A program made the position numbers and the translations under genes. Below the pieces are notes generated by a model, which saw nothing but the letters and a program-made list of their open reading frames with translations, had not been told where the DNA came from and ran no database searches. Shown in pieces: positions 249-18,712 of a stretch of 39,656 nt of DNA; within the stretch, counting starts at the first letter, position 1, and each line of letters begins with the position of its first letter. The stretch comes from Candidatus Kuenenia stuttgartensis (GTDB lineage: Bacteria; Pseudomonadota; Alphaproteobacteria; SMXS01), in NCBI GenBank assembly GCA_943329845.2, contig CALQFM020000035.1, positions 1-39,656 of the forward strand. Direction: 5' to 3'.

Positions 249-461
249 CTACGATCCAGCGGGCGAAAGGTTCCGATACGCGCCGTTATTCATCGCGTCG
301 TCTTCCACGTCCGCCATCACCCAAAGGGCATGGAAGATCCCGGGGAAGACTCCGAGAGCGGTGAGCATGAGGCTGCACCAGAAACTGGCGTTGAACCCGC
401 GCTCGCGAAAAATCGCGAAGGGCGGCAGCAGGATGGCGGTGAGGATGCGCATTGTGTTCAT
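249..461 (-). CDS. Pmp3/YqaE-family small membrane protein
   Basis: This 70-residue protein belongs to the Pmp3/YqaE family of tiny inner-membrane proteins linked to membrane potential and salt or cold stress. The family signature is visible: RILTAILLPPFAIF near the start, then a second hydrophobic segment CSLMLTALGVFPGIFHALWV. Two membrane helices are expected. The C-terminal tail of about 20 polar residues makes it slightly longer than the usual 50-60 residues. The start at 461 is chosen because GGAG sits six bases upstream; the ATG at 473 overlaps that ribosome binding site and is unlikely. It stands alone between the presumed IS and the downstream end of the large minus-strand cassette. 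Confidence 0.75.
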   Translation of the reverse strand: MNTMRILTAILLPPFAIFRERGFNASFWCSLMLTALGVFPGIFHALWVMADVEDDAMNNGAYRNLSPAGS

Positions 462-597
462 GGCGGTCTCCATTTGCGACCCCCGCGTTCATTCGAATGA
501 GTCGAGGGCCTATGTATCGAGAACCGGATTCCCGGCGCTCGAGTTCCTGCGGGCCGGGTTTGCAAGGATGAATGGTTGCACGCTTGCCGGTGACGCG

Positions 598-1458
598 TCA
601 GACGATGCCTGCAAGCCGACGCGCGGCGCCGACCGACGGGCAGGTCCAGCGCACGAGCCCGTAAGGGTTGCCGCAGATCACCGGCTCGGGTTGGCAGGAC
701 CGTTCCTTGAAGCGCCGCCACATGGGCGACGCGCTCATGGCGGCGAGCACGGGCCGCAGTTCGCGCACACCTTCGGCGACGGCCGCCTCGACCGCCAGCG
801 GCAGTTCGCCGGCTTCCGGGTAGAATGGCGACAGCGTCTCGGCCCGCCGGGCGTCCTCGGCGGACCAGAGCACCGCATCGACGATCATGGCGACCGCCTC
901 CTGGTAGCCGGGCACCGCTCTCAGCCCGGCGGCGGCGAGCATGGCCAGCACATTGGCGTTCACCGTGCAATCCGCCATGTCGGGGTCAAGCCCCGGCCGC
1001 ATCCAGGTCCTGAAGGCGCCGACCCGCGGCCATGCCGGTCCGGGCTGGACGGTGGCTGCCAGGCGGTGGCTGACGACGGTGCGGCAGGCGGTCAGGCGCA
1101 GGTCATCGAGCGACAGCCGGTCCGCCTTCCACAGCAGCAGCGCGAACAGGGACGTGTCGTCGGCGTCGTCGGGCAGATCCGGCGCCCAGGCAGGGCGCTC
1201 GCCCAACGGCCAGAAGCGGAACCCGCCGGTCTGGGGGTTCCGGCACCGTTCGAGGGCACGAAGGGAAGCGTCGTGGCTCCGGGACCCGAGCGTCCGGCCC
1301 GCATGCGCGCCGAGCGCGCGCAGCACCTGGGCGGTCGCGAAGCCGTTGCGGTCGTCGTGGTCCATGCCGCTGCCGGTCACCCGGCAGGCGAACAAGCCGT
1401 CCTGGTCCTCCAGGCCCGGCTGTCGCGAACTCAGGGCCGCAAACCCACCTGCAACCAT
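598..1458 (-). CDS. terpene-cyclase-like alpha/alpha-toroid protein of unknown function
   Basis: A 286-residue soluble protein, last gene of the cassette. I see features of the prenyltransferase/squalene-cyclase toroid fold. These are helical repeats with alternating small and hydrophobic residues, an acidic stretch DDADDTSLFALLL around residues 78-90, and DCTVNANVLAML around 162-173, which resembles the repeat helices of that superfamily. It is much shorter than a squalene-hopene cyclase (about 650 residues) and has no clear QW repeats, so a full cyclase activity is doubtful. The start at 1458 overlaps the end of the upstream gene by 28 bases, suggesting translational coupling with the ABBA-like protein. 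Fold assignment is inference; substrate unknown. Confidence 0.6.
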   Translation of the reverse strand: MVAGGFAALSSRQPGLEDQDGLFACRVTGSGMDHDDRNGFATAQVLRALGAHAGRTLGSRSHDASLRALERCRNPQTGGFRFWPLGERPAWAPDLPDDADDTSLFALLLWKADRLSLDDLRLTACRTVVSHRLAATVQPGPAWPRVGAFRTWMRPGLDPDMADCTVNANVLAMLAAAGLRAVPGYQEAVAMIVDAVLWSAEDARRAETLSPFYPEAGELPLAVEAAVAEGVRELRPVLAAMSASPMWRRFKERSCQPEPVICGNPYGLVRWTCPSVGAARRLAGIV

Positions 1459-2372
1459 GGCTTCCCGTCCTCGGTGACGCCGAAGCCGATCATGCCGTGG
1501 CGACCCGACTTGTCGGGCGCGCCGGTGCCCAGCATCGCTTCATAGATGGCCGTATCCCAACCGTAACGCTTGGCGAGCTCGCGCAGCTTGCGGCTGACCG
1601 ATTCGTCGCCGCCGAGCATCGGCCCGGCCTGGACGAAGAATCCGGCCGCGACCAGCCGCCCATCCATGGTGGCGAGACTGAGACCGGCGGTGCCGGGCAG
1701 CAGGTATTCGTCACAGGGACGGCCGGTGAGATGTGCCGCCAGATCGATGACAGACGCGGCGTCGAGGCCGCACCTGATCAGCAGCCGCTCGATCTCCCAG
1801 ATCTCGGGCCGCTGCAAACGGCCATAGAGTTCGACCGTGCCCGCGCCACCGTCGATGCCCGCCATGCGCCAGATGACGCGGGACGGGATCGAATGCAGGA
1901 TCGACGGGCGCAACAATTCGGCCGGCAGCTCGGCGCCCGCCATGTCGACATAGAGCTTGTAGCGGTCGCGGTCGACGTCATGGCGACCGCCTATCCAGGC
2001 ACCGAATCGCAGCGCCTGTCCAGCCTGGGGCACCAGCCAGTCAGGCACGCCGGTGTTGACGCCCAGACCCTGCAGCACCTGCATCGCGTGGCCGAGCCGC
2101 TCGCCCTCGGGCGTATCCGGCCCGGAAGCCTCCGAGGTCCAGCGCACGGAGGAATCCCGTGAGGACCACGACATTTCCACCGGAAATCCGGTGTTGGTCA
2201 GGCTGCTCGCCCGCCAGGCGATCTCCGGCCATCGGGACCGGCGCATGTTGGAGAGGGTCGCGTCCAGCGCCCGGCTCGCCCGCCGGGCCGCGAGCGGCGC
2301 GACAGGTCGTAACCGGGTAAGCGCGGCGTCCAGGGGCGCCGCTTCCGGCGCGATGCGTGCTGCGAAGCTCAT
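1431..2372 (-). CDS. protein resembling ABBA-fold (LynF/TruF-type) prenyltransferases
   Basis: A 313-residue protein with no signal peptide. Its second half alternates predicted helices and paired strands: RYKLYVDM (about 137-144), TVELYGRLQRPEI, GLSLATMDGRLVAAGFFV, and a final strand MIGFGVTEDGKPWLQVGL. This pattern and spacing resemble by eye the cyanobactin peptide prenyltransferase family, in which repeated alpha-beta-beta-alpha units form a barrel and Lys/Arg/Tyr residues on the strands hold the prenyl diphosphate. The length (about 300) fits. The start ATG overlaps the upstream stop as ATGA, so it is translated together with the large 757-residue protein. The assignment rests on remembered similarity only; it may instead be a distant non-catalytic relative or something new. 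Confidence 0.55.
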   Translation of the reverse strand: MSFAARIAPEAAPLDAALTRLRPVAPLAARRASRALDATLSNMRRSRWPEIAWRASSLTNTGFPVEMSWSSRDSSVRWTSEASGPDTPEGERLGHAMQVLQGLGVNTGVPDWLVPQAGQALRFGAWIGGRHDVDRDRYKLYVDMAGAELPAELLRPSILHSIPSRVIWRMAGIDGGAGTVELYGRLQRPEIWEIERLLIRCGLDAASVIDLAAHLTGRPCDEYLLPGTAGLSLATMDGRLVAAGFFVQAGPMLGGDESVSRKLRELAKRYGWDTAIYEAMLGTGAPDKSGRHGMIGFGVTEDGKPWLQVGLRP

Positions 2373-4642
2373 AGCTGTATGGGCACCACTTCCTCGTCTG
2401 ACGTCTGGAAAGCTAGACGCCTGAAATCGCCGTTTGTTCCAACCACCGTATAGCGGAACCGGAACTGCCTCTGGTCCGGGTCCAGCAGCGCGATTCTGAG
2501 CTTCACGTTGTCGGTCTGGTCGCCCTTGATATCGAGCCTTTCCGACCGGCTGTAGTTGTTCGCCGGGTCGTCATACTCCACGTCAATGAACACCTGCTTA
2601 ACGGCGGTGATGTCGAACAACGGAATGAACTCGATACTCAGCGCCTGGTCGAACGGATCGTGGACCAGCAGGGCCGACGAGGTCAGCTCTTGCGCCAGCT
2701 GTTCGCGCACGCTGCCGTCTTTCAGATGGTGCTTGAGGGCAAAGGTGACCGTGCGCGTGTCCGGCGCGACCGGTTTGGGTGCCCGGAGCTTCCAGACCTG
2801 CGGCGGCGAGTCCGGCAGGACGATGAAGGTCTTCTTCATGTCGAAGCCGGTCGGGCCGAGCGCGCGCAGGGTGACCTCGGTCGAGGTGATGATGCCGGCA
2901 TCGATGTCGCCCGGCGTAACCGAGATCTCGAGGAAGTCGAGCACGTCGTAGGGATTGATGAACAGCGTGCGATCGGCGGTTCGCGACGCCGGCAGCTCGA
3001 TGCTCGAGCGGTCGGAATCCCAACCCGCGTCCGGGCTGAAGTGGAACTGCTGCTGCTGCTGGTAGTCGACGTCGTGGGTCGAGTTGAGGAACACGGTGAA
3101 GTCCTTGGGCCCCTTGTCGCCCTCGCGGAACACGAAGTCGCCGTGCTTGTGGTCGGCCGCGTTGGCCGGATCGCCATAGTCCAGCGCCACCTGGGCCGAC
3201 GACAGCCCAATGCGGGCGAAATCGATGGGCACTTCCGCCTGCACCTTGAACTCGCGGAAGAACGGATCGTCCAGGTCCACCTCGGTGAAATAGCTGTCCT
3301 TGTCAGCCAGATCGCCCAGCAGCAGGCCGAAGAAGCCCTGCGGCGCATAGGTCCGCCGTGTCGCCTCGGCCCGGTTGTAGTGGAACGTCAGCTTCTTGCG
3401 CTCCTCCTGCCGGATGAACTTCAGCTTGAGGCTGACCACGCCGGGCATGGTGCTGGCCGTCGGCGTGGGCGTGGGCGTATATTCCTCGATCTTGTGATCG
3501 CGGCCGTGCAGGTAGGAGAGCTTGGCCTCGACGTTGAAGATCGGCAGGTTGGCGAAGTCGGCGTTGACCCGCACCGAGACTTCCAGGGTCTGGAAGAACG
3601 GATCGTTGAGATCGACCTCGAGGGCGTAGTCGGCCCAGTTGAATCCCTTGCCGTCCGGGCCCTTCATGGTGGTGATGTTGGGCAGCAGGCCCTGCGGCAC
3701 GATGTTCCACTCGATCACCTGGCTTTCCTTGAACGAGATGTTCACGTCGGCGATCTGGGTCTTCGACACCGTGCGCTTGATGTCCTCGATGTCCTGGTCC
3801 TCGCGCAGGCTCTTGGTATCGGGATCGGTCTTCTCGATCTCCTTGAGCATGTTGCGCTCGACCGCCTCCTCGAGCTGGCGGGTGACGGCGGACCGGATAT
3901 CCGCTTCCATCTTGCGCTGGTCCTCGGCCGACATGGCCGGGTTTCCGACGAAATTGAACTCGGTGCCCATCACCTCGTTCTTGCGCATGGTCTCGCGGAT
4001 GTTTTCTTCGTAGCTGTCCTCGCTCCAGAAATTGTCCTCGGTGTTGATCTCCTGGACGAAGGAATAGAACTGGCTGGCGTGCCACCAGCCACGGGCGGTG
4101 ACTGGCGGCAGCTTGGCCCAGATCTTCAGGTCGTAGACCACCGAGACGAAGCCGCCCTGGCCCTGGAGCGCGGCCTCGAACACGGTGGCGCCGGCCTTGG
4201 TCAGCTCGACCCAGAAGGTGGCGACGTTGTTGCCGTAGAGCGACGGCTTGCCGGCGCCGCGCACCTTCTCGACCAGGGTGCTGCCCTCGCCGATATTGAG
4301 ATTGGCGGTGCCGCCCGTGTAGGTCAGCGGGCCAACGATCACCACCGACGGCTGCTGGCCGCGCGGCTGGTAGATGGCGTTGACCTGGCTCTGCAGCGCC
4401 TGCTTCACCGGTTCCAGCTTCTCGGGCGCGACGACGAACTCGGTGTCGAAGGCGCAGACGCCGCCGAACAGGTCGTTCCCGTCCTTGCGCAGTTCGCGGT
4501 ACTTGATGAACTTGAACACCGGCTTGCCGTCCTCGAGACGGAACCGCGGCGTCTGCGGCACGAGGTAGAACGTGAAGTCGCTCTTGTCGTCGCCATAGAC
4601 GGTGACGTCGTTAATCTGCTGAACCTTGTCGATCTGAAGCAT
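2369..4642 (-). CDS. 757-aa modular beta-rich protein of unknown function with four DPF-type repeats
   Basis: I do not recognise a named family. The start at 4642 is set by a strong AGGAGGG site four bases upstream; an earlier ATG at 4672 lacks one. Residues 22-180 contain a module (FYLVPQTPRFRL, then EFVVAPEKLEPVKQAL, then WVELTKAGATVFEAAL) that recurs in the three upstream proteins of the cassette. Residues 236-305 are highly charged and probably helical or coiled-coil. After that come four related strand-rich segments at about 341-377, 454-489, 560-596 and 658-692; the first two start VDLNDPFF and VDLDDPFF. A TPTPTPTAS linker (389-397) and a QQQQQ run (528-532) separate domains. No signal peptide or membrane helix is visible. 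It looks structural rather than enzymatic, but that is inference. Confidence 0.85.
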   Translation of the reverse strand: MLQIDKVQQINDVTVYGDDKSDFTFYLVPQTPRFRLEDGKPVFKFIKYRELRKDGNDLFGGVCAFDTEFVVAPEKLEPVKQALQSQVNAIYQPRGQQPSVVIVGPLTYTGGTANLNIGEGSTLVEKVRGAGKPSLYGNNVATFWVELTKAGATVFEAALQGQGGFVSVVYDLKIWAKLPPVTARGWWHASQFYSFVQEINTEDNFWSEDSYEENIRETMRKNEVMGTEFNFVGNPAMSAEDQRKMEADIRSAVTRQLEEAVERNMLKEIEKTDPDTKSLREDQDIEDIKRTVSKTQIADVNISFKESQVIEWNIVPQGLLPNITTMKGPDGKGFNWADYALEVDLNDPFFQTLEVSVRVNADFANLPIFNVEAKLSYLHGRDHKIEEYTPTPTPTASTMPGVVSLKLKFIRQEERKKLTFHYNRAEATRRTYAPQGFFGLLLGDLADKDSYFTEVDLDDPFFREFKVQAEVPIDFARIGLSSAQVALDYGDPANAADHKHGDFVFREGDKGPKDFTVFLNSTHDVDYQQQQQFHFSPDAGWDSDRSSIELPASRTADRTLFINPYDVLDFLEISVTPGDIDAGIITSTEVTLRALGPTGFDMKKTFIVLPDSPPQVWKLRAPKPVAPDTRTVTFALKHHLKDGSVREQLAQELTSSALLVHDPFDQALSIEFIPLFDITAVKQVFIDVEYDDPANNYSRSERLDIKGDQTDNVKLRIALLDPDQRQFRFRYTVVGTNGDFRRLAFQTSDEEVVPIQL

Positions 4643-4675
4643 CTTACCCTCCTCTAGAAATGCTCGCGGCACCGC

Positions 4676-5323
4676 CTAGCGGGCCGTCGTCCAGTCCGCG
4701 GCGTCCAGCTGGGCGCCCAATTTCTCGGTTTGCATGACGGTCTCGCGGCTGGCCGATGTCTCGGCATGGCCAGAGGCCGAGCTCCACGAGCCATCCGGCC
4801 CGTCTCCTTCAGCCGCCTCGCTGGTCGCCACATGCCCGGCCGAGGCCGAGGTCACGGGCGTCTGGCGGGTGATGTCGTAGCGCAGCACCATCTGGTGCCG
4901 CTTGCCGTCGAGGCCCTCCTTGACGGTCTTGAGCTGCTTTTCGTCGAGCATGACGTTGAACGCCGCGTGGAACGGCGGCATGCCCGACGACTTGCCCTGC
5001 TGCAGCACGGTGTAGCCGTCGGCCCCGTCGTCCATCAGCAGCGAGACGCCGTCGATGGTTTCGGGCACCGGCATGAAGTTCAGGCTGGCCGGGTCCTTGC
5101 CCAGCTTGCCGGCCAGCTCCCGCTTCGCCGCGTCGACATCGGCGGCGCTGAGGCTCCAGGTCCCGGTGATCTGCAGGAACGATACCGGCCCCGCGGCGAG
5201 CAGGTTGAACTGGGGCCGGCCGTTGCCGTCCAGGGCGATGCCGAGAGTCCTGGGCGCGTAGTACCAGACACCCGACTCTTCGTCGGGAATCACCATGGCA
5301 TTCTTCAGCTCGATGACGCTCAT
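4676..5323 (-). CDS. 215-aa single-module protein of the cassette, unknown function
   Basis: A short member of the cassette's shared-module family. Residues 18-156 align by eye with the N-terminal module of the 757-residue neighbour: VWYYAPRTLGIAL with GRPQFNLL, then an ADVDAAKREL helix, then AAFNVMLDEKQLKTVKEGL and QMVLRYDI. The remaining 60 residues are rich in Ser, Ala, Gly and Glu and are probably disordered. The ATG overlaps the stop of the upstream 610-residue gene as ATGA, and the 757-residue gene begins 33 bases after its stop. It may be a minimal subunit or adaptor of whatever the larger proteins build. No known family was recognised. Confidence 0.85.
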   Translation of the reverse strand: MSVIELKNAMVIPDEESGVWYYAPRTLGIALDGNGRPQFNLLAAGPVSFLQITGTWSLSAADVDAAKRELAGKLGKDPASLNFMPVPETIDGVSLLMDDGADGYTVLQQGKSSGMPPFHAAFNVMLDEKQLKTVKEGLDGKRHQMVLRYDITRQTPVTSASAGHVATSEAAEGDGPDGSWSSASGHAETSASRETVMQTEKLGAQLDAADWTTAR

Positions 5324-7152
5324 CGCGCGTCCTCCATGACGGTGGCGGCTGCGCCCGCCCGCTGGCTGCTGCGCAGCGCGAGCGGGCCGAGCGACGGATC
5401 GATGCGGTCGGACCAGGGCTCGGGCGTCTCGCCGGCGGGCCGGAACCAGCGCCAGCGGAAGCCGTCGAGCAGCGGGTTGGTCACCAGCCAGCGCCAGTCG
5501 CGCGCCGGCGCCGCCAGCGTCAGCCGCACCAGGCCGATGGCGTCGGTCTCGTCGAGCCGGTCCTCGGGCGCACATTCGATGGCCGCCATGCCTGCGCCGT
5601 CGTCGAAATGGCAGACGATGTCGATTTTCGCCGGGCCGGCGGTCGGGAAGCTGGACAGGTCGAGCCAGCAATCCTCCAGCGGCCGCGTGTCCAGCGTCAG
5701 GGTCCGGCCGCCATCCGGCGTCGTCGCCGTCACATCGAGCGCGCCGCCCTCGATCTGGCGTGGGACCGCGAAGGCCAGCGCGCCGGTCGCGCTGGTGAGG
5801 TCGGCCTCGGCCGACCAGGGCTTGCCATTCTGGCTGCCTCCGCAACGAATATGCAGGTTCACGGCTTCGAGCAGCGCGGGCGTCGCATCGACCCGCAGGA
5901 AGCGCACGGGGAAGCTGTCTGGCGTGATGGTGAGGTGCGCGCCCTCGTGGCGCAACGACGGTCCGGTCAGCCGTTGGGCGCCGGCGAGGCCAGCGACGAA
6001 GGCGACCGCCTGATAGTCGAACGCAACCGGTTCGGCGGGCGACAGCCGGACGGTTACCGTCTTCGAGGTTTCGCCCTCGCGAAACAGGGCCGACGCGGTG
6101 ACGGTCTGGGGCCGGTCCGGCGGGAATGGCGGCACGCGGATCTCGGCGCCCAGCATCAACACGCCGACCCGCTTCGGCGGCAGGTTCGGGAACACGCTGA
6201 GGACGTGCAGGCCGGTGGCGAACGGCACCACCGGCGCTTCGCGCGTCAGCCTGAAGCCGTTGGCGGTTGCCTGCCGCGCCGTCTCGAGCGGGTTGGATGC
6301 CAGCGTCACCGCGCGTGGCACCAGCAGCGGCTCGTTCAGGTCCCAGTCCATCTCGCCGTCCAGCATGGCGGCGGTGTCGAACGCATAGACCGGCCCCGAG
6401 GTTGGATCGTCCGCCGGCGCCAGCGCGGCGAAGCGGCCGATCAGCCGCTCGGTGAAGGCGTCCGCCGCCGCGACCCGTTCCGCATCGCTGCCGATGCCGG
6501 AAAAGCCGAGTACCGGTGTGTCGGCACGGGCGACAAGCGCTGCCGCCAGCGCGCCGGGCGCGACCTTGCCGTTCACCGCCACGCCGCCGATCAGCGAGGG
6601 CAGCACGGCGGGATTGAAGGTCACATGGGCGGGCACGCGGCGCGCTACACCCCAAGTTTCCAGCTCGGCCACCGCGGTGACCGTCACCAGGCCGTTGACC
6701 AGCGCGTCGTTGAGCAGCTGGGTCGCAGCCTGGCTAAGCTGAGCGGCGAAGGTGAGCGCGCCGGCGCCGGCCCATACGAGAGGCTTGGGTAAAAGCAGGT
6801 CGGCGGGCAGATCGAGTGCTTCGGCCGCCTGGAAGCGCAGGAAACCGCCGCGCGGCACGAGCGGCTCGACCCGGACCTCCTGATGCTCGGCGAACACCGC
6901 CTTCTGCCGGTCGGCGATGGCGAAGTCGGCGACGAAGCGGATGGTGAGCAGGCCGAACACCATCGGCCCGTCCGCGGCGCCGGAAAGCCGGATCAGCTCA
7001 AGCGCCATGGCCGGTGCGCCGCCCGGCTCGTCGGAAACGCGCAGCGCCGCCGGCGGCACAAACGCGCGCAACGGCTCCTCGAAGGCCAACCAGACATCGC
7101 CGCCCGCCGCCTTCAGCGGGTTGGACCAGTCGGGCGTGCCCTTCAGCGACAT
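5320..7152 (-). CDS. 610-aa beta-rich protein of the cassette, unknown function
   Basis: No named family recognised. The first 180 residues follow the same order as the shared module: a strand region VWLAFEEPLRAFVPP, ALRVSDEPGG, MALELIRLSG, FGLLTIRF, then GALTFAAQLSQAATQLLNDAL and AVAELETWG. The rest is strand-rich, with WDLNEPLLVPRAVTLASNPLE near 278-298 and a string of probable beta-sandwich segments up to a conserved-looking LVTNPLLDGFRWRWFRP near the C-terminus. It lacks a signal peptide, membrane helices and cysteine-rich or catalytic-looking motifs. It starts seven bases after the 772-residue gene and ends overlapping the 215-residue gene, so the four are surely co-translated. Confidence 0.85.
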   Translation of the reverse strand: MSLKGTPDWSNPLKAAGGDVWLAFEEPLRAFVPPAALRVSDEPGGAPAMALELIRLSGAADGPMVFGLLTIRFVADFAIADRQKAVFAEHQEVRVEPLVPRGGFLRFQAAEALDLPADLLLPKPLVWAGAGALTFAAQLSQAATQLLNDALVNGLVTVTAVAELETWGVARRVPAHVTFNPAVLPSLIGGVAVNGKVAPGALAAALVARADTPVLGFSGIGSDAERVAAADAFTERLIGRFAALAPADDPTSGPVYAFDTAAMLDGEMDWDLNEPLLVPRAVTLASNPLETARQATANGFRLTREAPVVPFATGLHVLSVFPNLPPKRVGVLMLGAEIRVPPFPPDRPQTVTASALFREGETSKTVTVRLSPAEPVAFDYQAVAFVAGLAGAQRLTGPSLRHEGAHLTITPDSFPVRFLRVDATPALLEAVNLHIRCGGSQNGKPWSAEADLTSATGALAFAVPRQIEGGALDVTATTPDGGRTLTLDTRPLEDCWLDLSSFPTAGPAKIDIVCHFDDGAGMAAIECAPEDRLDETDAIGLVRLTLAAPARDWRWLVTNPLLDGFRWRWFRPAGETPEPWSDRIDPSLGPLALRSSQRAGAAATVMEDAR

Positions 7153-7159
7153 GGCGCCC

Positions 7160-9478
7160 TCACACGATCGGCAGGACGAGGAGGCTGAAATCCGCCTCCC
7201 GCCAGCTGGGATCGACGGTCTGGCTGCCGTTGCGGCGGATGATCTGCTGGCGGAAGCCGTACTTGCCCTGGGTATCCTTGCCGAGCAGCAGGTCCATCAG
7301 CGGCAGCTGCACCTGCGCCACGCCCTGCGTCTGGTCGCGGCTGAGCTTCAGATTGCCGCCGCCCCGAAACTCCACATTGATCAGGAGGATGGCGTTGGGA
7401 TCGGCAGCGTCGCCCATCAGCTCGGGCATGGTCATCACGTCGATCTGCCGCTCGTACTGGGCCGGCACCGAGGTGTCGCTGATCAGCGGCAGGATCTTTT
7501 CCGGGTCGGGCAGGATTTCCAGCGGCGCCGTATCGAACACCGCATCGAGCATGCCCTCGCCGGCGAGCCCGGCGCCCGGCCGGACCGTGAACGACAGCTC
7601 GCCGCCGGACACCAGTTCGATGGGCACGTCGAAGCTGATGCCCTCGACGGTGGCGGCAACCTCCTGGTCGCCCTTGCGGACCCGCACGGGCAGTGATCTC
7701 AGCCGGATGGTGCTTTCGATGTCGTTCTTCATCCGCACGGCGATGGTGCCGTCAGCCTCCGACGGCTGTTCGCCGAAGGAAAGCACCTCGCCCTGGGTGT
7801 CGGCGAAGCGGATCTCCACCGGCACCGGCTCGGGCGTCGACAGGCCGGTCTCGACCAGCACCTGCCCGGAGAACAGGCTGGTGGCGTCACGGCTGTAGGC
7901 GGCGGCATAGAGCTGGCGGAAGCCTTCGAGCGGCAGTGTCAGGCTGTGCATGAAGCCGTTGGCCAGGTCGATGGCCACGTCCTTCTGATCGGCCAGCGTC
8001 GAGCCGCCCGCTCCCGGCACCCACAGTTTCAGGCTGGCGCGGGCCTGCAGCGGACGCAGCTCGGGCTCGGTCTTCTGCGTGGTCGCGGCCGGGATTTCGG
8101 CCTTGAGCGCCGCGGCTGCGGCCTTTAGCCGGGCCGGATCGATCCACGGCTCGACCATGTAGTCCATGCTGACCGTGGCGCTGTCGATGGCGCCGTCGGG
8201 CGCGGCGATGCGCACCACCATCTGCGGCAGGAACGGCGCCACGTCGCGGCGCGCCAACTTGAACCGGTCGGGCAGGTAGTAGAACACCCAGGGCTCGCCC
8301 TTGTCCTGCAGCCAGGCGTGGAACCGGGCGTCCGGCGCGCCCTTTGGATGGGCGATGACGATGCGGCGGAACTCCGAGACTTTCGCGCCGCCGCCGCCCA
8401 CCGCGGCGCCGTCGTAGAGATAGGGATGCAGGCGCGGGTCGAGCACGAAGGGCTCGGGATCGGCCACGTCGTCGAGCGCGCGGTCGATGCTGCGGTAGCG
8501 GTCCACCGGCTGCGGCGGCGCCGTATCGGGCTGGACGAAGACCGGGCTGCCTTCGAGCGCCTCCACCGCCAGCGGACGGGCGCGCATGCGCATCATCGCC
8601 GGCCGCGCCATCATGGCGACGGGCTGGGCCGCCGCGGGTTGAACGGACGCCGCATGGGCCATCCTGAAGGCCGCCGGCTGAGCCGCCGCCATCACGGCGA
8701 TGTTGGGTCTGGCGACCAGCATGGGCAGGTCTTGCGTGGCGCCGCCCTGGGCCGGAATCCTCGCCGCCACCGTGATCGCGCGGCGCACCACCAGCGTGGG
8801 CCTCGCGGCAGGCGTCTGCAGGGCGAACAGCAGATTGTCGCGTTCGTTCAGCGACAGCGCGACCGAGACGGACACGCCCTTGGGATCGTCGGACTTTTCG
8901 TTGAAGTCGACACGCTTCTCGATGGCGTTGGATGGTCCGGCACCGTAGCGAAAGAAGACCGCGATGGTGTGCGTCAGCTCGGCCGCGCCCTGGGCGCCGG
9001 CGCCAAGTTCCGGCGCGGGGAAGCGTTCGAGGCCGATGCCGAGGCGCCAGGTGCCGTCCTGGGCGGCGGCGATGCCGATCTCGTAGCGGCCGCCCTGCTC
9101 GCGCAGCCGGTAGCGCGGCAGATAGTATTTCTTCGACGCGTCCGCCGGATCCTCGAACAGCACCGCGTCGGTCGGTTCCGGCACGGGCGAGATCGGCAGC
9201 GTGATGTGCTCGCGGGCATCGCCCTCGGCCGCTTGGCCGATTACGTCGAAGATGTGCGGCCTGATCCTGGTCATCCGCATGGCGAGGCGCGGATTGGTCA
9301 TGGCCACGGGCTGTTCGAAGGTGGCGAGGCGCGCCTCGGACATGGTCGTCGTCATCCGGGCGGCCGGCGCCGCGGCCGCGGCAACGGTGATCGAGGGCTG
9401 GACGCGCGCGGCCATCATTGCCGGCCCGGCACGCATGAAGGTGGGTGCGTTAGGCATGTCCAGCACGCCTGGCATCAT
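7160..9478 (-). CDS. 772-aa first protein of the cassette, low-complexity linkers plus two shared modules
   Basis: The most upstream gene of the cassette and also without a recognised family. The N-terminal 75 residues and residues 258-305 are rich in Ala, Met, Pro, Val and Arg and look disordered. Between them, residues 108-180 contain KKYYLPRYRLREQ, a form of the module seen in its neighbours. A second copy at 398-460 (FYYLPDRFKLARRD, then EPWIDPARLKAAAAALKAE) aligns closely with the 757-residue protein, and LEGFRQLYAAAYS at 518-530 continues the match. The C-terminal 200 residues are strand-rich. No ribosome binding site is obvious at 9478, and ATGs at 9475 and 9457 are possible starts. 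Confidence 0.8.
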   Translation of the reverse strand: MMPGVLDMPNAPTFMRAGPAMMAARVQPSITVAAAAAPAARMTTTMSEARLATFEQPVAMTNPRLAMRMTRIRPHIFDVIGQAAEGDAREHITLPISPVPEPTDAVLFEDPADASKKYYLPRYRLREQGGRYEIGIAAAQDGTWRLGIGLERFPAPELGAGAQGAAELTHTIAVFFRYGAGPSNAIEKRVDFNEKSDDPKGVSVSVALSLNERDNLLFALQTPAARPTLVVRRAITVAARIPAQGGATQDLPMLVARPNIAVMAAAQPAAFRMAHAASVQPAAAQPVAMMARPAMMRMRARPLAVEALEGSPVFVQPDTAPPQPVDRYRSIDRALDDVADPEPFVLDPRLHPYLYDGAAVGGGGAKVSEFRRIVIAHPKGAPDARFHAWLQDKGEPWVFYYLPDRFKLARRDVAPFLPQMVVRIAAPDGAIDSATVSMDYMVEPWIDPARLKAAAAALKAEIPAATTQKTEPELRPLQARASLKLWVPGAGGSTLADQKDVAIDLANGFMHSLTLPLEGFRQLYAAAYSRDATSLFSGQVLVETGLSTPEPVPVEIRFADTQGEVLSFGEQPSEADGTIAVRMKNDIESTIRLRSLPVRVRKGDQEVAATVEGISFDVPIELVSGGELSFTVRPGAGLAGEGMLDAVFDTAPLEILPDPEKILPLISDTSVPAQYERQIDVMTMPELMGDAADPNAILLINVEFRGGGNLKLSRDQTQGVAQVQLPLMDLLLGKDTQGKYGFRQQIIRRNGSQTVDPSWREADFSLLVLPIV

Positions 9479-9691: not shown

Positions 9692-9748
9692 TAACCCGCA
9701 GACATAGCGCCAGTGGACTCGGTAAACGCCACCGATTTCTATTGTTCG

Positions 9749-9777
9749 TCTAGATTGCCCAGGATGATTCCTGTCAA
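9749..9777 (-). promoter_or_regulatory. possible sigma-70 type promoter for the cassette
   Basis: On the minus strand a perfect TTGACA (9777-9772) is followed after 17 bases by TCTAGA (9754-9749), a poor -10 match. It would give a leader of roughly 260 nucleotides to the start at 9478. The AT-rich context supports a promoter here; the exact -10 is uncertain. Confidence 0.3.
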
Positions 9778-9994
9778 ATCTTTATGGCCAAACTGTGACC
9801 CATACGTCAGGTCTCAGCCCGATGGAGGCAAGTCCGCCATTGTCGTGCGTTTTGTGGTAACAGGATGGAGCCCCGGACGATGTGACATTCGCCATAGATG
9901 GCAGAAACAAGGCGCATCCCGGCGGTAGTAGCGACCATGTGAGTAATACAATCGGCGATTGTGCCGAGTCGCCGTCCGGCACCGTAAATGCAAA

Positions 9995-12740: not shown

Positions 12741-13201
12741 TATGCCGCCAGACGCATCTCGAGCCCCTCCCCCGGACGGCGAGGCGCGCGCCCCACACGC
12801 ACACCCCGTTCAATCACCGCCCTGCGAGGATGTTACCCTCTGGTAAGGCCAACGTCTCGCCCTTTGTGACCACAACCGCCTTACTGGCGAGAGCATCCGG
12901 CCGGCTTGGGGAGGCTCAGATAAATTGCAACGGCTCGCAGCAGGCAGCGTGTAAATGTCGGCCGTCTTACGGTCTCACACCACCGCCGCGGCATCGATTA
13001 TTATGCAGGCACTTGCCCATGATTTAATCAAACGAAGTATCCATGTTACCGCACCGGGCAAATATTGGCGTATCCCATGCGAAAACCAGTAGCGCGGAAA
13101 TATTCTGGCAGTTGACACCGTCGATGAACCTCGGTGACACTTTTGCTATCGGAGCCGGAGCGGGGCCAGCCGCTCATCTGTCTGCAACAGAGGACGGTGC
13201 G
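12741..13201. promoter_or_regulatory. divergent intergenic region between the MFS gene and the amine-utilisation operon
   Basis: This 461-base gap has no convincing gene. It should hold promoters for both directions. Visible elements are TTACC-CTCT-GGTAA (12833-12846), an AT-rich patch near 13020-13110, and a perfect -35 box TTGACA at 13112-13117 on the plus strand. No regulator gene lies next to it, so the controlling protein must be encoded elsewhere. Confidence 0.5.
13112..13140 (+). promoter_or_regulatory. TGACAC repeat and candidate -35 before the permease gene
   Basis: TGACAC occurs at 13113-13118 and again at 13135-13140, 22 bases apart, about two helical turns. The same stretch contains an inverted pair CACCG and CGGTG. 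The first copy overlaps TTGACA. This arrangement suits an operator, but a matching -10 is not obvious. Confidence 0.3.
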
Positions 13202-14698
13202 ATGAGCGAGATCAAGGGTACACAGGGCGTTTCCTACAATACGGTCGACGGTCAGTATTTCGAGAAGCGCGGCCTGAGGCGATATGCCGGGGTTTTCTCG
13301 CTCTGGGCGCTGGGCGTGGGCGCCGTCATCTCGGGCGACTTCTCGGGGTGGAACTTCGGCCTGGCCTTCGGCTGGGGCTCGCTGTTCGTTGCCACCGTCA
13401 TTATTTCGGTCATGTATCTCGGCCTGATTTATTCGATCGCCGAGATGTCGCCTGCCCTGCCGCATACGGGCGGCGCCTATTCCTTCGCCCGGTCGGCGAT
13501 GGGGCCCTGGGGCGGATTCGTCACCGGCATCGCCGAGAACATCGAATACATCCTGACGCCGGCGGTGATCGTGTTCTTCATCGGCACCTACATGGAAGCG
13601 ATCCTCGGGACGCCGCCGATGTTCCAGCCGTTCTACTGGCTGGCGGGATACGTGATATTCCTGGGCCTCAACCTGTTCGGTGTCGAACTGTCGTTCAGGG
13701 TTACCGTGTTCGTGACGCTGGTGGCGCTCGCCGTGTTGTTGATCTTCTTCGTCAGCGCCATCCCGCATGTGGATTTCAGCCGCTGGGCGATGAATATCGG
13801 CGTCGGCCCCGACGGCGCGCTGATCGAGTTGCCCGACGGCGGCGGACCCTGGTTCCCCGACGGCATCCATGGCATCCTGGGCGCCCTGCCCTTCGCGGTC
13901 TGGCTGTTCCTCGCCATCGAGCAACTGCCGCTGGCCGCCGAGGAGTCGGTGGATCCCCGCCGCGACATGCCCAGGGGCATCCGGCTGGGCATCTTCACCC
14001 TGATCCTGACCGGCTTCGGCGTGCTGTTCTTCAACGCCGCCATCGGGCCCGGGTCATGGGGCCTGAAAACGTCCGGCGAGCCGTTGCTCGAGGGTTTCCG
14101 CACCATGTACGGCACCAATATCGCCAAGGTGTTGTCGCTGGCGGCGATCCTGGGCCTGGTCGCCAGCTTCCATGCGATCATGTACGCCTATGGACGGCAG
14201 ATCTATTCGCTGTCGCGCGCGGGCTATCTGCCCAAGGGCCTGTCGATCACCCACGGCAAGCACAAGACGCCCCATGCGGCGCTGCTCGCCGGCAGCGTGG
14301 CCGGACTCGCGGTGATGCTGATCATCTGGTTCGCCTACCCCAACGACAGCGGCACGCTGATCGGCGCCACCCTGCTCAACATGGCCGTGTTCGGTGCCAT
14401 GCTGTCCTACATCTACCAGGCGCTATCCTTTGTCCTCCTGCGGATCAAGATGCCGCATATCGAGCGGCCCTACCGCAGCCCGTTCGGCATCCCCGGCGCG
14501 GTCGCGACCATGATCATCGGCCTCGTCACCATCTATTTCCAGGTCACCGACCCGGCGTTCCGGACGCCGGTGATCGCCACCGCCTGCTACTATGCGGTCA
14601 TGATCCTCTATTTCGCGGTGTTCGGCCGGCACCGGCTGGTGCTGTCGCCGGAAGAGGAATTCGCCATGACCAAGGGTGCGTCGGGCCACAGCGGCTGA
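13202..14698 (+). CDS. ethanolamine-type permease (APC superfamily)
   Basis: A 498-residue, twelve-helix transporter. The N-terminal block YFEKRGLRRYAGVFSLWALG followed by GVGAVISGDFSGWNFGL is the characteristic start of the ethanolamine permease group of amino acid-polyamine-organocation transporters. A further conserved region is EMSPALPHTGGAYSFARSAMGPWGG. The start at 13202 is preceded by AGAGGA at good spacing, so the longer upstream reading frame is not used. It heads an operon in which the ligase, two dehydrogenases and an amidotransferase follow in order, which supports import of ethanolamine or a similar amino alcohol. The exact substrate is inferred. Confidence 0.88.
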   Translation: MSEIKGTQGVSYNTVDGQYFEKRGLRRYAGVFSLWALGVGAVISGDFSGWNFGLAFGWGSLFVATVIISVMYLGLIYSIAEMSPALPHTGGAYSFARSAMGPWGGFVTGIAENIEYILTPAVIVFFIGTYMEAILGTPPMFQPFYWLAGYVIFLGLNLFGVELSFRVTVFVTLVALAVLLIFFVSAIPHVDFSRWAMNIGVGPDGALIELPDGGGPWFPDGIHGILGALPFAVWLFLAIEQLPLAAEESVDPRRDMPRGIRLGIFTLILTGFGVLFFNAAIGPGSWGLKTSGEPLLEGFRTMYGTNIAKVLSLAAILGLVASFHAIMYAYGRQIYSLSRAGYLPKGLSITHGKHKTPHAALLAGSVAGLAVMLIIWFAYPNDSGTLIGATLLNMAVFGAMLSYIYQALSFVLLRIKMPHIERPYRSPFGIPGAVATMIIGLVTIYFQVTDPAFRTPVIATACYYAVMILYFAVFGRHRLVLSPEEEFAMTKGASGHSG

Positions 14699-14760
14699 TA
14701 GGCTTTGCGGCGCGGTGCCCGGGCACCGCGCCGCCATAACCGAGACGAGACGCGGAGCTC

Positions 14761-16128
14761 ATGGATCCAAGACAGGTGAAGACCGCCGACGACGCCAGGG
14801 CGATCGTCGAGCAGCGGGGGTTGGACTACATCAAGGTCGGCGTGTTCGACGTCGACGGCGTCATGCGCGGCAAGTACATGGCCAAGGACAAGTTCTTCTC
14901 GGCCCTCGACCATGATTTCGGCTTCTGCGACGTGGTGCTGGGCTGGGACTCGAACGACCAGCTCTATGACAACGTCAAGGTGACCGGCTGGCACACCGCC
15001 TATCCGGACGCCATGGTCCGCATCGTTCCCAACAGTTGCCGGGCCGTGCCCATGGAAGGCGACATGCTGCTGTTCCTGGGCGAGTTCGCCGGCCAGGCCG
15101 AAGGCGTCTGCCCGCGCGGCGTGCTGCGCAACGTGCTGGGCCGCGCCAACCGGCTGGGCTATGGCGTGCGCGCCGCCGCCGAGTTCGAGTTCTTCGTGTT
15201 CGACGAGACGCCCCATTCGGTGCGCGAGAAGCATTACCGTGACCTGAAGAACATCACGCCCGGCTATTTCGGCTATTCCATGCTGCGCAGTTCGGTCCAC
15301 GCCGACTTCTACAAGGAGCTGCTCGACATGGCGGCGGCGATGGACTTCCCCATCGAGAGCCTGCACACCGAGACCGGCCCAGGCGTGATCGAGGCGGCGA
15401 TCAACCACGACGTGGCACTCGCCGCCGCCGACAAGGCCGCGCTGTTCAAGACCTTCGTCAAGATCCTGGCGCAGAAGCGCGGCTGGATGGCGACGTTCAT
15501 GGCCAAGTGGTCGCCCAGCTGGCCCGGCCAGAGCGGCCATCTGCACCTGTCACTGACCGGCAAGGACGGCAAGCCCGTGTTCCATGATCCGGCCAAGCCG
15601 CACGGCATGTCGGACGTGATGCGCTGGTTCGTCGGCGGCCAGCAGAAGCTGATGCCCGAGCTGCTGTCCATGGTCGCCTGCACCGTCAATTCCTACACGC
15701 GGCTTATCCCCGGCTTCTGGGCGCCGACCCAGGCCAGTTGGGGCGTCGAGAACCGCACCTGCGCGCTGCGCATCATCGGCGGTTCGCCCAAGGCGCAGCG
15801 GATCGAGTACCGGATCGCCGCCGCCGACATCAACCCCTACATCGCGCTGGCCTGCGCCATCGGCTCGGGCCTGTGGGGCATCGAGAACCGGGTGGAGCCG
15901 GACGATCCCGTTACCGGCAACGCCTACGCCATGGACTTCCCGGCGGCGCGCAGCCTGCCGCGCACCCTGTCGGAAGCGGCCGAGCGGCTGCACAAGTCGA
16001 GGGCGGCGCGCGACCTGTTCGGCGACGCCTTCGTCGAGCACTACGCCGCGACCCGCGACTGGGAAGAGCGCGAGTTCCGCAAGGCGGTCACCGACTGGGA
16101 ACTGGCCCGCTACTTCGAGATCATCTGA
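14761..16128 (+). CDS. glutamine-synthetase-family gamma-glutamyl amine ligase
   Basis: A 455-residue member of the glutamine synthetase superfamily, of the PuuA / GlnA3-GlnA4 / IpuC type that joins glutamate to an amine instead of ammonia using ATP. Metal and substrate motifs visible are AAAEFEFFVFDE, HTETGPGVIEAA, GQSGHLHLSL, NSYTRLIPGFWAPT, NRTCALRI and IEYRIAAADINPYIAL. The N-terminal beta-grasp region carries VGVFDVDGVMRGKYM, a form common in these ligases. It lies between an ethanolamine-type permease and oxidative enzymes, so the likely product is gamma-glutamyl-ethanolamide; a polyamine or isopropylamine-like substrate is possible. Its stop overlaps the next start (TGATG), showing coupled translation. 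Confidence 0.9.
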   Translation: MDPRQVKTADDARAIVEQRGLDYIKVGVFDVDGVMRGKYMAKDKFFSALDHDFGFCDVVLGWDSNDQLYDNVKVTGWHTAYPDAMVRIVPNSCRAVPMEGDMLLFLGEFAGQAEGVCPRGVLRNVLGRANRLGYGVRAAAEFEFFVFDETPHSVREKHYRDLKNITPGYFGYSMLRSSVHADFYKELLDMAAAMDFPIESLHTETGPGVIEAAINHDVALAAADKAALFKTFVKILAQKRGWMATFMAKWSPSWPGQSGHLHLSLTGKDGKPVFHDPAKPHGMSDVMRWFVGGQQKLMPELLSMVACTVNSYTRLIPGFWAPTQASWGVENRTCALRIIGGSPKAQRIEYRIAAADINPYIALACAIGSGLWGIENRVEPDDPVTGNAYAMDFPAARSLPRTLSEAAERLHKSRAARDLFGDAFVEHYAATRDWEEREFRKAVTDWELARYFEII

Positions 16129-17522
16129 TGGCCGCGACCCTGCAATGCGTGAGCCCGGTCGACGGCCGGGTCTATGTCGAACGGCCGCTGGCGGACGCCG
16201 CCGCGATCGAGGCCGCGCTGGACAGGGCCGTCGCCGGCCAGCGGGCATGGAAAGCGACGCCGCTGCCCGAGCGCCAGGCCCTGCTGGCGAGGGCGGTCGA
16301 TGCCTTCGTTGCGCACGGGCCAGAGATCGCCACCGAACTGACGTGGATGATGGGCCGGCCCATCGCCTATACACCCGGCGAGGTGCGCGGCTTCGAGGAC
16401 CGGGCGCGGACCATGATCGCGCTGGCGGCGGACGCGCTCGCACCGCTCGATCCCGGCCCGAAGCAAGGCTTCAAGCGCTATGTTGCCCATGAGCCGCTGG
16501 GCGTGGTCGCGGTGATCGCGCCGTGGAACTATCCCTACCTGACAGCGGTGAACGCGGTGATCCCGGCGCTCGCCGCCGGCAACGCGGTGATCCTGAAGCA
16601 TTCGCACCAGACGCCGCTCTGCGCCGAGCGCTTCGCCCAGGCTTTCGAGGAAGCCGGACTGCCCGAAGGCGTGTTCACCCACCTGCATCTGAGCCACGCG
16701 GACACGGCCGCGCTGATCGCCGACGGGCGGATCGGCGGCGTTTGCTTCACCGGCTCGGTCGAAGGCGGCCACTCGGTGCAGAAGGCTTTGGCAGGCAAGT
16801 TCGCCGCCGCCGGGCTGGAGTTGGGCGGCAAGGACCCGGCCTATGTGCGCGCCGATGCCAACCTGGCCCACGCCGTCGAGAACCTGGTCGACGGCGCCAT
16901 GTTCAATTCGGGCCAGAGTTGCTGTGGCATCGAGCGCATCTACGTCCATGACAGCCTGTTCGACGACTTCGTCTCCGGCGCGTTCGAGCTGACCCGGAAA
17001 TACATCCTGGGCGATCCGACCAAACCTGAAACCACGCTCGGACCCATGGTGCGCGCCTCGGCCGCTGCCTTCGTGCGCTGCCAGATCGACGAGGCGGTGA
17101 AGCAGGGCGCCTCGGCGCTGCTGGACCCGGCGCATTTTGCGGCAGACTCCCCTGGAACGCCCTATCTCGCGCCCCAGATACTGGTCCATGTAGATCATTC
17201 CATGCGGATCATGAGCGAGGAGACCTTCGGCCCCGCGGTCGGAATCATGAAGGTGACGTCGGACGAGGAGGCGGTGCGGCTGATGAACGACAGCGCCTAT
17301 GGCCTGACCGCCGCCATCTGGACCGAGGACGTCGAGGCCGCCGAGCGCATCGGACGCCTCATCGACACCGGCACGGTGTTCATGAATCGCTGCGACTATC
17401 TGGACCCGGCGCTGGCCTGGACCGGCGTCAAGGACAGCGGCCGCGGCTGCACCCTGTCGGCGCTGGGCTACCAGTACCTGACCCGGCCCAAATCCTTCCA
17501 TCTGCGCACCACGACGCGCTAG
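16128..17522 (+). CDS. NAD(P)-dependent aldehyde dehydrogenase
   Basis: A 464-residue aldehyde dehydrogenase superfamily protein. The cofactor region VIAPWNYPYLTAVNAVIPAL, the glutamate of LELGGKDP and the catalytic cysteine in NSGQSCCGIERIYV are all present, and the C-terminal EETFGP motif closes the fold. It overlaps the ligase gene by one base and precedes the alcohol dehydrogenase by nine. In the pathway suggested by the operon it would oxidise gamma-glutamyl-aminoacetaldehyde to gamma-glutamyl-glycine. Its preference for a glutamylated substrate is inferred from context only. The first ATG, overlapping the ligase stop, is the natural start. Confidence 0.92.
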   Translation: MAATLQCVSPVDGRVYVERPLADAAAIEAALDRAVAGQRAWKATPLPERQALLARAVDAFVAHGPEIATELTWMMGRPIAYTPGEVRGFEDRARTMIALAADALAPLDPGPKQGFKRYVAHEPLGVVAVIAPWNYPYLTAVNAVIPALAAGNAVILKHSHQTPLCAERFAQAFEEAGLPEGVFTHLHLSHADTAALIADGRIGGVCFTGSVEGGHSVQKALAGKFAAAGLELGGKDPAYVRADANLAHAVENLVDGAMFNSGQSCCGIERIYVHDSLFDDFVSGAFELTRKYILGDPTKPETTLGPMVRASAAAFVRCQIDEAVKQGASALLDPAHFAADSPGTPYLAPQILVHVDHSMRIMSEETFGPAVGIMKVTSDEEAVRLMNDSAYGLTAAIWTEDVEAAERIGRLIDTGTVFMNRCDYLDPALAWTGVKDSGRGCTLSALGYQYLTRPKSFHLRTTTR

Positions 17523-17531
17523 GACATCGAA

Positions 17532-18710
17532 ATGAGCGACACCCTGACCGGCAACTGGAACTACCCGACGCGGGTGCTGCACGGCCCCGGGCGCATCGGC
17601 GAACTGGCGCAGGCCTGCAGGTCGCTGGGCATTACCCGGCCGCTGTTCGTCACCGACAAGGGCCTGCTGCCGTCGCCCATCGCCCAGGCGGCGCTGGAAG
17701 GTCTGCGCCGGGAGGGCCTGGAGTCGGCCGCGTTCGCCGACATCAAGCCGAACCCGGTGGGTGCCAACATCGACGACGGCGTGTCGGTCTACAAGCAGGG
17801 CGGCCATGACGGGGTGATCGCCTTCGGCGGCGGCTCGGCGCTCGACGCCGGCAAGGCCATCGCCTTCATGAGTGGCCAGACGCGGCCGATCTGGGACTTC
17901 GAGGACGTTGGCGACTGGTGGACCCGCGCCGACCCGAACGGCATCGCCCCCATCGTCGCCGTGCCGACAACCGCAGGCACCGGCTCGGAAGTGGGGCGCG
18001 CCGCCGTGGTGCTGAACGAGGACGCCCATGAGAAGAAGATCATCTTCCACCCGAAGATGCTGCCCGGCATCGTCATCTCGGACCCGGAACTGACCGTCAA
18101 GCTGCCGCCGCACATCACCGCGGCGACCGGCATGGATGCGTTCACCCACTGCTTCGAGGCGTTCTGCGCGCCGGGCTTCCATCCCATGGCCGACGGCATC
18201 GCGCTCGAAGGCATGCGGCTGATCGTCGAGCACCTGCCGCGCGCCGTCCAGGACGGCACCAACATCCTCGCCCGTTCGCGGATGCTGACCGCCGCCTCCA
18301 TGGGCGCCGCCGCGTTCCAGAAGGGTCTGGGCGCGGTCCATGCCATCTCGCATCCCGTCGGCGCGCTCTACGACACCCATCACGGCCTGACCAACGCCGT
18401 GGTGCTGCCCTATGTGATGATGCACAACCGCCGCGCCATCGAGGGCAAGATGGGCCATCTTGCCGCCGTACTCGCTCTCAGCCATCCCGGTTTCGACGCG
18501 GTGCTGGCCCATGTGCTGTACCTGCGCGAGCACATCGGCATCCCGCACACCCTGGCCGAGATCGGCGTCGACGCCGCGCGCGCCGCCGAGATCGGCCGCT
18601 TCGCCGAGGCCGATCCGTCGGCCGGGGGCAACCCCATCGAGGTGAAGGCACCGGTGCTCGAGCGCATCTTCCGCGCGGCCGTTTCGGGCAGGATCGAAGA
18701 CGCGGCCTGA
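17532..18710 (+). CDS. iron-containing (group III) alcohol dehydrogenase
   Basis: A 392-residue protein with the two-domain layout of metal-dependent alcohol dehydrogenases. The nucleotide site shows as FGGGSALDAGKA and PTTAGTGSEVG. Metal ligands lie in TGMDAFTHCFEAF and in GAVHAISHPVGALYDTHHG, with the expected Asp and three His. In this operon it would oxidise the alcohol end of gamma-glutamyl-ethanolamide to the aldehyde, feeding the dehydrogenase encoded just before it. An AGGAC sequence overlapping the upstream stop is the ribosome binding site. The next gene begins two bases after its stop. Confidence 0.93.
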   Translation: MSDTLTGNWNYPTRVLHGPGRIGELAQACRSLGITRPLFVTDKGLLPSPIAQAALEGLRREGLESAAFADIKPNPVGANIDDGVSVYKQGGHDGVIAFGGGSALDAGKAIAFMSGQTRPIWDFEDVGDWWTRADPNGIAPIVAVPTTAGTGSEVGRAAVVLNEDAHEKKIIFHPKMLPGIVISDPELTVKLPPHITAATGMDAFTHCFEAFCAPGFHPMADGIALEGMRLIVEHLPRAVQDGTNILARSRMLTAASMGAAAFQKGLGAVHAISHPVGALYDTHHGLTNAVVLPYVMMHNRRAIEGKMGHLAAVLALSHPGFDAVLAHVLYLREHIGIPHTLAEIGVDAARAAEIGRFAEADPSAGGNPIEVKAPVLERIFRAAVSGRIEDAA

Positions 18711-18712
18711 CC

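What the first reader, a model, noticed from the sequence alone, without database searches (positions are those of the whole stretch)
598..9478. Six-gene minus-strand cassette of unknown function, large modular proteins plus two terpene-enzyme-like proteins
Four proteins with no recognisable family (772, 610, 215, 757 aa) are followed, with ATGA overlaps at 5320-5323 and 2369-2372 and a 28-base overlap at 1431-1458, by an ABBA-prenyltransferase-like and a toroid-like protein. The packing implies one transcript and fixed stoichiometry. Nothing here matches secretion systems, phage tails or known biosynthetic clusters that I know. A multi-subunit assembly whose parts or cargo are prenylated is one hypothesis; it is speculative.
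Basis: partly seen in the sequence, partly recalled or inferred. Interest (0 to 1): 0.8.

Follow-up and report, generated by a model that had tools for sequence, protein, structure and literature searches.

The report
Prenyl-cyclase pair with Ig-like proteins
Distant bacteria keep a block of genes together that encodes several large related proteins with antibody-like domains plus two enzymes that look able to attach a terpene chain to an aromatic group and fold it into rings, which suggests a protein assembly decorated with a cyclised lipid that has not been described before.

Summary
The six genes are real, tightly packed and recur. The window holds a shortened copy. Two genomes of the same genus and Ca. 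Nitrotoga carry eight genes in one order: g1 g2 g3 gA gB gC g5 g6. The window's 757-aa g4 is an in-frame fusion of gA's front with gC's end; about 5.4 kb, including gB, is missing (real deletion or assembly error). g2, g3, gA, gB, gC and part of g1 belong to one undescribed family: a shared N-terminal domain, plus tandem Ig/FnIII-like domains in the long members. g5 is a divergent DMATS/ABBA aromatic prenyltransferase with the catalytic Glu and pyrophosphate-binding Arg and Lys invariant. g6 is a single-domain class II terpene cyclase with an invariant DADDT motif; its model matches drimenol synthase (Z 21.5). g5-g6 sits beside these large proteins in Alphaproteobacteria, Nitrotoga and a cyanobacterial plasmid, with variable partners (an HBL-type toxin set, very large proteins). 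The closest described logic is NctPC, a fused ABBA prenyltransferase and cyclase acting on a tryptophan in a ribosomal peptide. Best reading: the pair installs a cyclised isoprenoid on an aromatic acceptor, probably a side chain of a subunit. The enzyme assignments are firm; acceptor and purpose are inferred.

The parts
9745..9800 (-). Non-coding block upstream of g1, 77% identical over 57 bases to the same place in G003; holds TTGACA at 9777-9772; candidate promoter region
   Evidence: blastn of upstream regions, sequence; no sigma-70 hit by the simple scan
7160..9457 (-). g1, about 765 aa (772 from the upstream ATG at 9478); residues about 387-478 resemble the N-domain of the A-like family
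   Evidence: 58-71% identical to homologues in Nitrotoga, G003 and G006; hhalign P-value 1e-4; distant relatives in Pararhizobium and G114
5320..7152 (-). g2, 610 aa, diverged full-length relative of the A-like family
   Evidence: hhalign 97% probability over 561 columns against the A-like alignment; alignment of four
4676..5323 (-). g3, 215 aa, essentially a free-standing A-like N-domain with a conserved LDAADWxxAR tail
   Evidence: hhalign 98% over 158 columns; alignment
3480..4642 (-). g4, front part: N-half of ancestral gA (N-domain)
   Evidence: 87% DNA identity to gA of G003 up to gene base 1193; protein 91%
2369..3472 (-). g4, rear part: C-terminal Ig/FnIII-like domains of ancestral gC; joined in frame at a Thr-Pro repeat
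   Evidence: 79-81% DNA identity to gC of G003 and G006 from gene base 1201; three tandem Ig/FnIII-like domains in the model
1431..2372 (-). g5, 313 aa, DMATS/ABBA-type aromatic prenyltransferase; invariant E66, R77, K139, Y141, Y183
   Evidence: profile vs PDB 6zrx E 8e-10, TleC 4yzj E 3.2e-5; residues vs TleC Glu106, Arg119, Lys187
598..1458 (-). g6, 286 aa, single-domain class II terpene cyclase-like alpha-alpha toroid
   Evidence: AF2 pLDDT 80.7, pTM 0.84; Foldseek E 2.8e-7 and VIA Z 21.5 to drimenol synthase
1153..1167 (-). codons for DADDT (g6 residues 98-102), the DxDD-type general-acid motif
   Evidence: invariant in all 7 homologues down to 28% identity; aligned to the drimenol synthase motif region

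Best explanation
The operon encodes an assembly of large paralogous proteins (a shared N-terminal domain, with tandem Ig/FnIII-like domains in the long members) and a two-enzyme module. g5 transfers a prenyl chain from a prenyl diphosphate to an aromatic ring, probably an indole or a phenol. g6 then protonates the chain with its DADD acid and folds it into rings. The most likely acceptor is an aromatic side chain (Trp or Tyr) of one of the co-encoded large proteins, giving a subunit with a rigid cyclised lipid that could dock on or insert into a membrane or seal the assembly. SHOWN by computation: the operon recurs, the paralogy, the family and catalytic residues of g5, the fold and acid motif of g6. 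INFERRED: that both are active, that they act in sequence, that the acceptor is protein-borne, and the membrane role.
For: g5 profile hits DMATS enzymes at 8e-10 and TleC at 3e-5. Glu and Arg/Lys residues that TleC uses for the indole N-H and pyrophosphate are invariant in 9 of 9 homologues. g6 model Z 21.5 to drimenol synthase, 16 to squalene-hopene cyclase, 15 to MstE, a cyclase crystallised with prenylated aromatic acids; DADDT invariant. g5 lies directly before g6, overlapping or within a few bases, in the window, G003, G006, Nitrotoga, Azospirillum, Calothrix and G371, always beside A-like proteins. In an even sample of 397 other genomes of the phylum, the two with strong A-like hits are both among the three with strong g5 hits (p about 4e-5). 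No PKS/NRPS, P450 or transporter lies among the cassette genes, so nothing else there would make a special small acceptor. Precedent: NctPC, ABBA prenyltransferase plus MstE-like cyclase acting on a peptide Trp (PMC13290415). A related cluster in Paracoccus carries a tyrosinase next to A-like genes.
Against: No acceptor site identified; the conserved Trp in the g3 tail may simply be structural. A-like clusters without any detectable g5 or g6 exist (Paracoccus), and g5 occurs without g6 (G114, Bryobacterales), so the pair is not obligatory. Free aromatic metabolites such as tryptophan are possible acceptors too. The g5 homologue in G152, away from A-like genes, has lost the Lys-x-Tyr pair, so some members may be inactive.
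Confidence: 0.42

Rival explanations
1. g5 and g6 make a free small meroterpenoid from a common aromatic metabolite (for example tryptophan), and the large proteins bind, carry or respond to it or are only co-regulated.
For: g5 is nearest to DMATS enzymes that act on free tryptophan or indolactam; g6 resembles MstE and drimenol synthase, which act on small molecules.
Against: No tailoring or export genes within the cassette, and the two enzymes share one tight operon with up to six large structural proteins whose order is kept.
Confidence: 0.28
2. The cassette makes a toxin-like or conflict complex: A-like proteins are the delivery or receptor frame, the enzymes prepare a lipid or lipidated effector, and the variable neighbour is the effector.
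For: Azospirillum: three mutually related HBL/NHE-type helical pore-former-like proteins directly upstream of A-like, g5, g6; Paracoccus: trypsin-EAD1, EAD1 and STAND-type ATPase next to tandem A-like genes; 1197-aa and 1494-aa partners in G371 and Calothrix; patchy, partly plasmid-borne distribution.
Against: No toxin, EAD or STAND gene was recognised in the window, G003, G006 or Nitrotoga cassettes; no PADLOC match for the window cassette.
Confidence: 0.17
3. g5 and g6 have kept their folds but lost catalysis and serve as lipid-binding or structural parts.
For: Both are shorter than many relatives and fall below curated family cut-offs.
Against: Catalytic residues are among the most conserved positions of both proteins across homologues of about 22-36% identity.
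Confidence: 0.1

Closest known systems
NctPC-type peptide prenylation and cyclisation (Hubrich et al. 2024, as summarised in PMC13290415)
   Same: ABBA-barrel prenyltransferase plus MstE-like single-domain cyclase working in sequence on an aromatic residue
   Different: here two separate overlapping genes, no short precursor peptide found, and large Ig-like proteins instead
DMATS / indole prenyltransferases (TleC, 6zrx)
   Same: significant profile match over most of the chain; catalytic Glu, Arg, Lys kept
   Different: about 313 aa against 360-465; far below TIGR03429 and Pfam cut-offs; genomic company of structural proteins
Drimenol synthase (terpene cyclase domain), MstE and squalene-hopene cyclase
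   Same: alpha-alpha toroid over 240-255 residues and an acid DxDD-type motif
   Different: g6 is one domain with no HAD or gamma domain; 12-14% identity
Tandem FnIII/Ig-like adhesins and alpha-2-macroglobulin-type arrays
   Same: row of beta-sandwich domains in the C-terminal half
   Different: match is generic (Z up to 7.4); N-domain has no sequence match and its fold is unresolved; no evident signal peptide on reading the N-termini (not run through a predictor)

Membership tests
DMATS/ABBA aromatic prenyltransferase superfamily | sequence homology to solved members over most of the domain | tested here: met
   6zrx E 8e-10 over 48-301 of 318; 4yzj E 3.2e-5
DMATS/ABBA aromatic prenyltransferase superfamily | catalytic Glu and pyrophosphate-binding Arg and Lys | tested here: met
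   E66, R77, K139 invariant in 9 of 9 and aligned to TleC Glu106, Arg119 (alignment) and the Lys-x-Tyr/Phe pair
DMATS/ABBA aromatic prenyltransferase superfamily | ten-stranded ABBA barrel | not tested
   five strand-pair repeats can be read in the sequence, but no structure was predicted for g5
TIGR03429 / PF11991 DMATS (curated families) | score above curated cut-off | tested here: not met
   15.7 of 163.85 bits; 13.7 of 25 bits, so it is outside these curated families
Class II terpene cyclase | alpha-alpha toroid (beta-type domain) | tested here: met
   AF2 pLDDT 80.7; Z 21.5, rmsd 3.3, 250 aligned, drimenol synthase
Class II terpene cyclase | DxDD acid motif | tested here: met
   DADDT invariant in 7 of 7
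Class II terpene cyclase | cyclisation activity | not testable with these tools
   needs enzyme assay
NctPC-type RiPP system | prenyltransferase and cyclase fused in one chain | tested here: not met
   separate genes in all seven loci
NctPC-type RiPP system | short precursor peptide gene nearby | tested here: inconclusive
   no convincingly conserved small ORF upstream; the conserved small downstream ORF is Pmp3
EAD/STAND conflict systems (PMC7159879) | EAD domains and STAND or MoxR NTPase in the locus | tested here: not met
   none among the window cassette proteins; present only in the Paracoccus relative

The most novel reading that the evidence does not exclude
A bacterial post-translational modification system for large folded proteins, in which a DMATS-type prenyltransferase and a free-standing class II terpene cyclase build a polycyclic isoprenoid on an aromatic side chain of a multi-subunit Ig-like assembly, spread horizontally across several phyla with interchangeable effectors.
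Probability: 0.33. Interest if true: 0.88.

Novelty: new variant of a known kind. Interest (0 to 1): 0.72.

Why it matters
Cyclised terpenoid groups on ribosomal products are known from a few short peptides. A conserved pair of the needed enzymes, welded by operon structure to large proteins in Alphaproteobacteria, Nitrotoga and Cyanobacteria, would extend that chemistry to protein assemblies and give a ready test system. The paralogous large-protein family itself matches no Pfam or NCBIfam model and no solved structure by sequence, and its co-occurrence with HBL-type proteins and EAD/STAND regulators hints at a role in conflict or membrane attack.

Tried and rejected
Viral contigs and phage records: no relative of g4. 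PADLOC: no match for the cassette. I first read the middle of gC as an OmpA-like peptidoglycan-binding domain; Pfam and PDB searches do not support it, so I dropped it. Could the missing gB lie elsewhere in the genome? No. A short RiPP precursor: none found upstream. The Pararhizobium 304-aa protein as a hidden g5: no match. The two EAD/conflict papers do not mention prenyltransferases or terpene enzymes. The g4 model is poor in residues 1-450, so no claim is made on the N-domain fold; its Foldseek/VIA hits are generic beta-sandwiches. Weak g6 hits in G357, G438, G207, G341 and weak g5 hits in G109 and G182 were not accepted as relatives.

Full report
Observation. None of the proteins passes a Pfam or NCBIfam cut-off. 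Nucleotide comparison with two congeneric genomes gives dN/dS of roughly 0.1 to 0.65 (mostly 0.1 to 0.45) for every gene, including both halves of g4, so all are genuine, selected genes. That comparison spans the whole divergence and cannot date selection after the fusion described next.

The window copy is a shortened one. Searching the genus showed that g4's first 400 residues and its last 370 match two different genes in G003 and G006. Reading those loci and the Ca. Nitrotoga fabula locus found by the genome-wide scan gives one eight-gene order: g1, g2, g3, gA (728 aa), gB (about 760), gC (1017-1105), g5, g6. At DNA level the window follows gA to gene base 1193 and gC from base 1201, skipping 5357 bases relative to G003, in frame, at a Thr-Pro repeat. 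gB is absent from the entire window assembly. Either a real in-frame deletion or an assembly error explains this; reads would decide. Four other genomes of the genus lack the g4 family altogether, so the cassette is accessory.

The large proteins form one family. gA, gB and gC are paralogues. Profile comparison adds g2 (97% probability over 561 columns), g3 as an isolated N-domain (98% over 158 columns) and a stretch of g1. The AF2 model of g4 is confident only in its C-terminal part, which is a row of three Ig/FnIII-like sandwiches; structural matches there are generic. The N-domain is predicted poorly and finds no PDB relative by sequence. So six of eight ancestral proteins are, wholly or in part, variations on one theme, which makes a hetero-oligomer plausible but does not prove it.

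g5 is a DMATS-superfamily prenyltransferase. Single-sequence hits were marginal (TIGR03429 E 0.007), but a nine-member profile hits bacterial DMATS 6zrx at 8e-10 and TleC (4yzj) at 3e-5. The printed alignment pairs g5 E66 and R77 with TleC positions 106 and 119, which PMC4786772 gives as the glutamate that hydrogen-bonds the indole nitrogen and an arginine that holds the pyrophosphate; a Lys-x-Tyr pair matches the Lys187 region. E66, R77, K139, Y141 and Y183 are invariant in nine proteins that share as little as 22% identity with g5.

g6 is a single-domain class II terpene cyclase by fold and motif. The model (pLDDT 80.7, pTM 0.84) aligns best to the cyclase domain of drimenol synthase: Foldseek E 2.8e-7, VIA Z 21.5 over 250 residues at 3.3 A, then squalene-hopene cyclases (Z 16) and MstE (Z 15), well above glycosidase toroids (Z about 12). 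The only PDB sequence hit of the profile, though weak (E 1.4), is also drimenol synthase, aligned at the acid motif. DADDT is invariant in all seven homologues.

Recurrence. The g5-g6 pair beside A-like proteins is present in the window, G003, G006, Nitrotoga, an Azospirillum plasmid (L034), a Calothrix plasmid (L035) and G371 (L038). g5 without g6 sits with A-like genes in a Bryobacterales contig (L019) and G114 (L036). A-like clusters without detectable g5 or g6 occur in Pararhizobium and Paracoccus plasmids. In an even sample of 398 phylum genomes, strong A-like hits are in 3, strong g5 hits in 4 and strong g6 hits in 2, and all 3 A-like genomes carry g5 next door; leaving out the window's own genome the overlap has p about 4e-5. 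No relative turned up in viral or phage collections.

Partners vary. Azospirillum has three mutually related proteins, one a clear Bacillus_HBL match, just upstream. G371 and Calothrix have 1197-aa and 1494-aa proteins. Paracoccus has trypsin-EAD1, EAD1, a STAND-type ATPase, a PLD-like protein, a trypsin and a tyrosinase. G114 has a Nal1-type protease and an amidase. This modularity looks like a reusable frame with interchangeable enzymes and effectors.

Mechanism. The simplest chemistry is prenyl transfer to an aromatic ring by g5, then protonation-driven cyclisation by g6. That logic is known: a 2026 review (PMC13290415, citing Hubrich et al. 2024, which I could not read) describes NctPC, a fused ABBA prenyltransferase and MstE-like cyclase that geranylgeranylates tryptophan and then cyclises the chain; [quoted passage not shown] Here the two activities are on separate overlapping genes and no precursor peptide was found, while up to six large co-encoded proteins are available as acceptors. 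I therefore favour a protein-borne acceptor at moderate confidence. The LDAADWxxAR tail of g3, kept in Nitrotoga although the preceding 50 residues differ, is one candidate site; its Trp could be merely structural.

What is shown and what is not. Shown by computation: gene structure, fusion, paralogy, enzyme family and residues, fold of g6, recurrence. Not shown: activity, order of steps, acceptor, assembly, location, biological role.

Noticed in passing
window 249-473 (-): Pmp3-family small membrane protein (PF01679, E 1e-16) directly downstream of g6 on the same strand; also downstream of g6 in G003 and G006 but not seen in Nitrotoga, so probably a genus flank.
   Followed up: partly
L034:10481-13967: Azospirillum lipoferum 4B plasmid AZO_p5: three related helical proteins, one with a clear Bacillus_HBL match, upstream of the A-like/g5/g6 genes; looks like an undescribed tripartite pore-former-like set.
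   Followed up: partly
L065:11013-17803 and L033:8984-28037: Paracoccus plasmid: tandem A-like genes bracketed by EAD1-trypsin, EAD1, STAND-type ATPase, PLD-like, trypsin and tyrosinase genes.
   Followed up: partly
L032:24911-29182: Pararhizobium 1423-aa protein with P450 and weak Dyp-peroxidase matches next to the A-like cluster.
   Followed up: no
L055:10242-11222: G152 carries a lone g5 homologue away from A-like genes that appears to have lost the Lys-x-Tyr pair: a possible pseudoenzyme.
   Followed up: partly
window 13043-19546: Amino-acid permease, glutamine-synthetase-like, Fe-alcohol dehydrogenase and class-I GATase genes (with an aminotransferase at 29983-31374) resemble a glutamylated-polyamine catabolism group.
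   Followed up: no
L032:9221-10987 and L036:12442-14052: Homologous 588/536-aa proteins within A-like clusters with a GTC...(H)...N pattern suggestive of a papain-like cysteine peptidase; no Pfam match.
   Followed up: no
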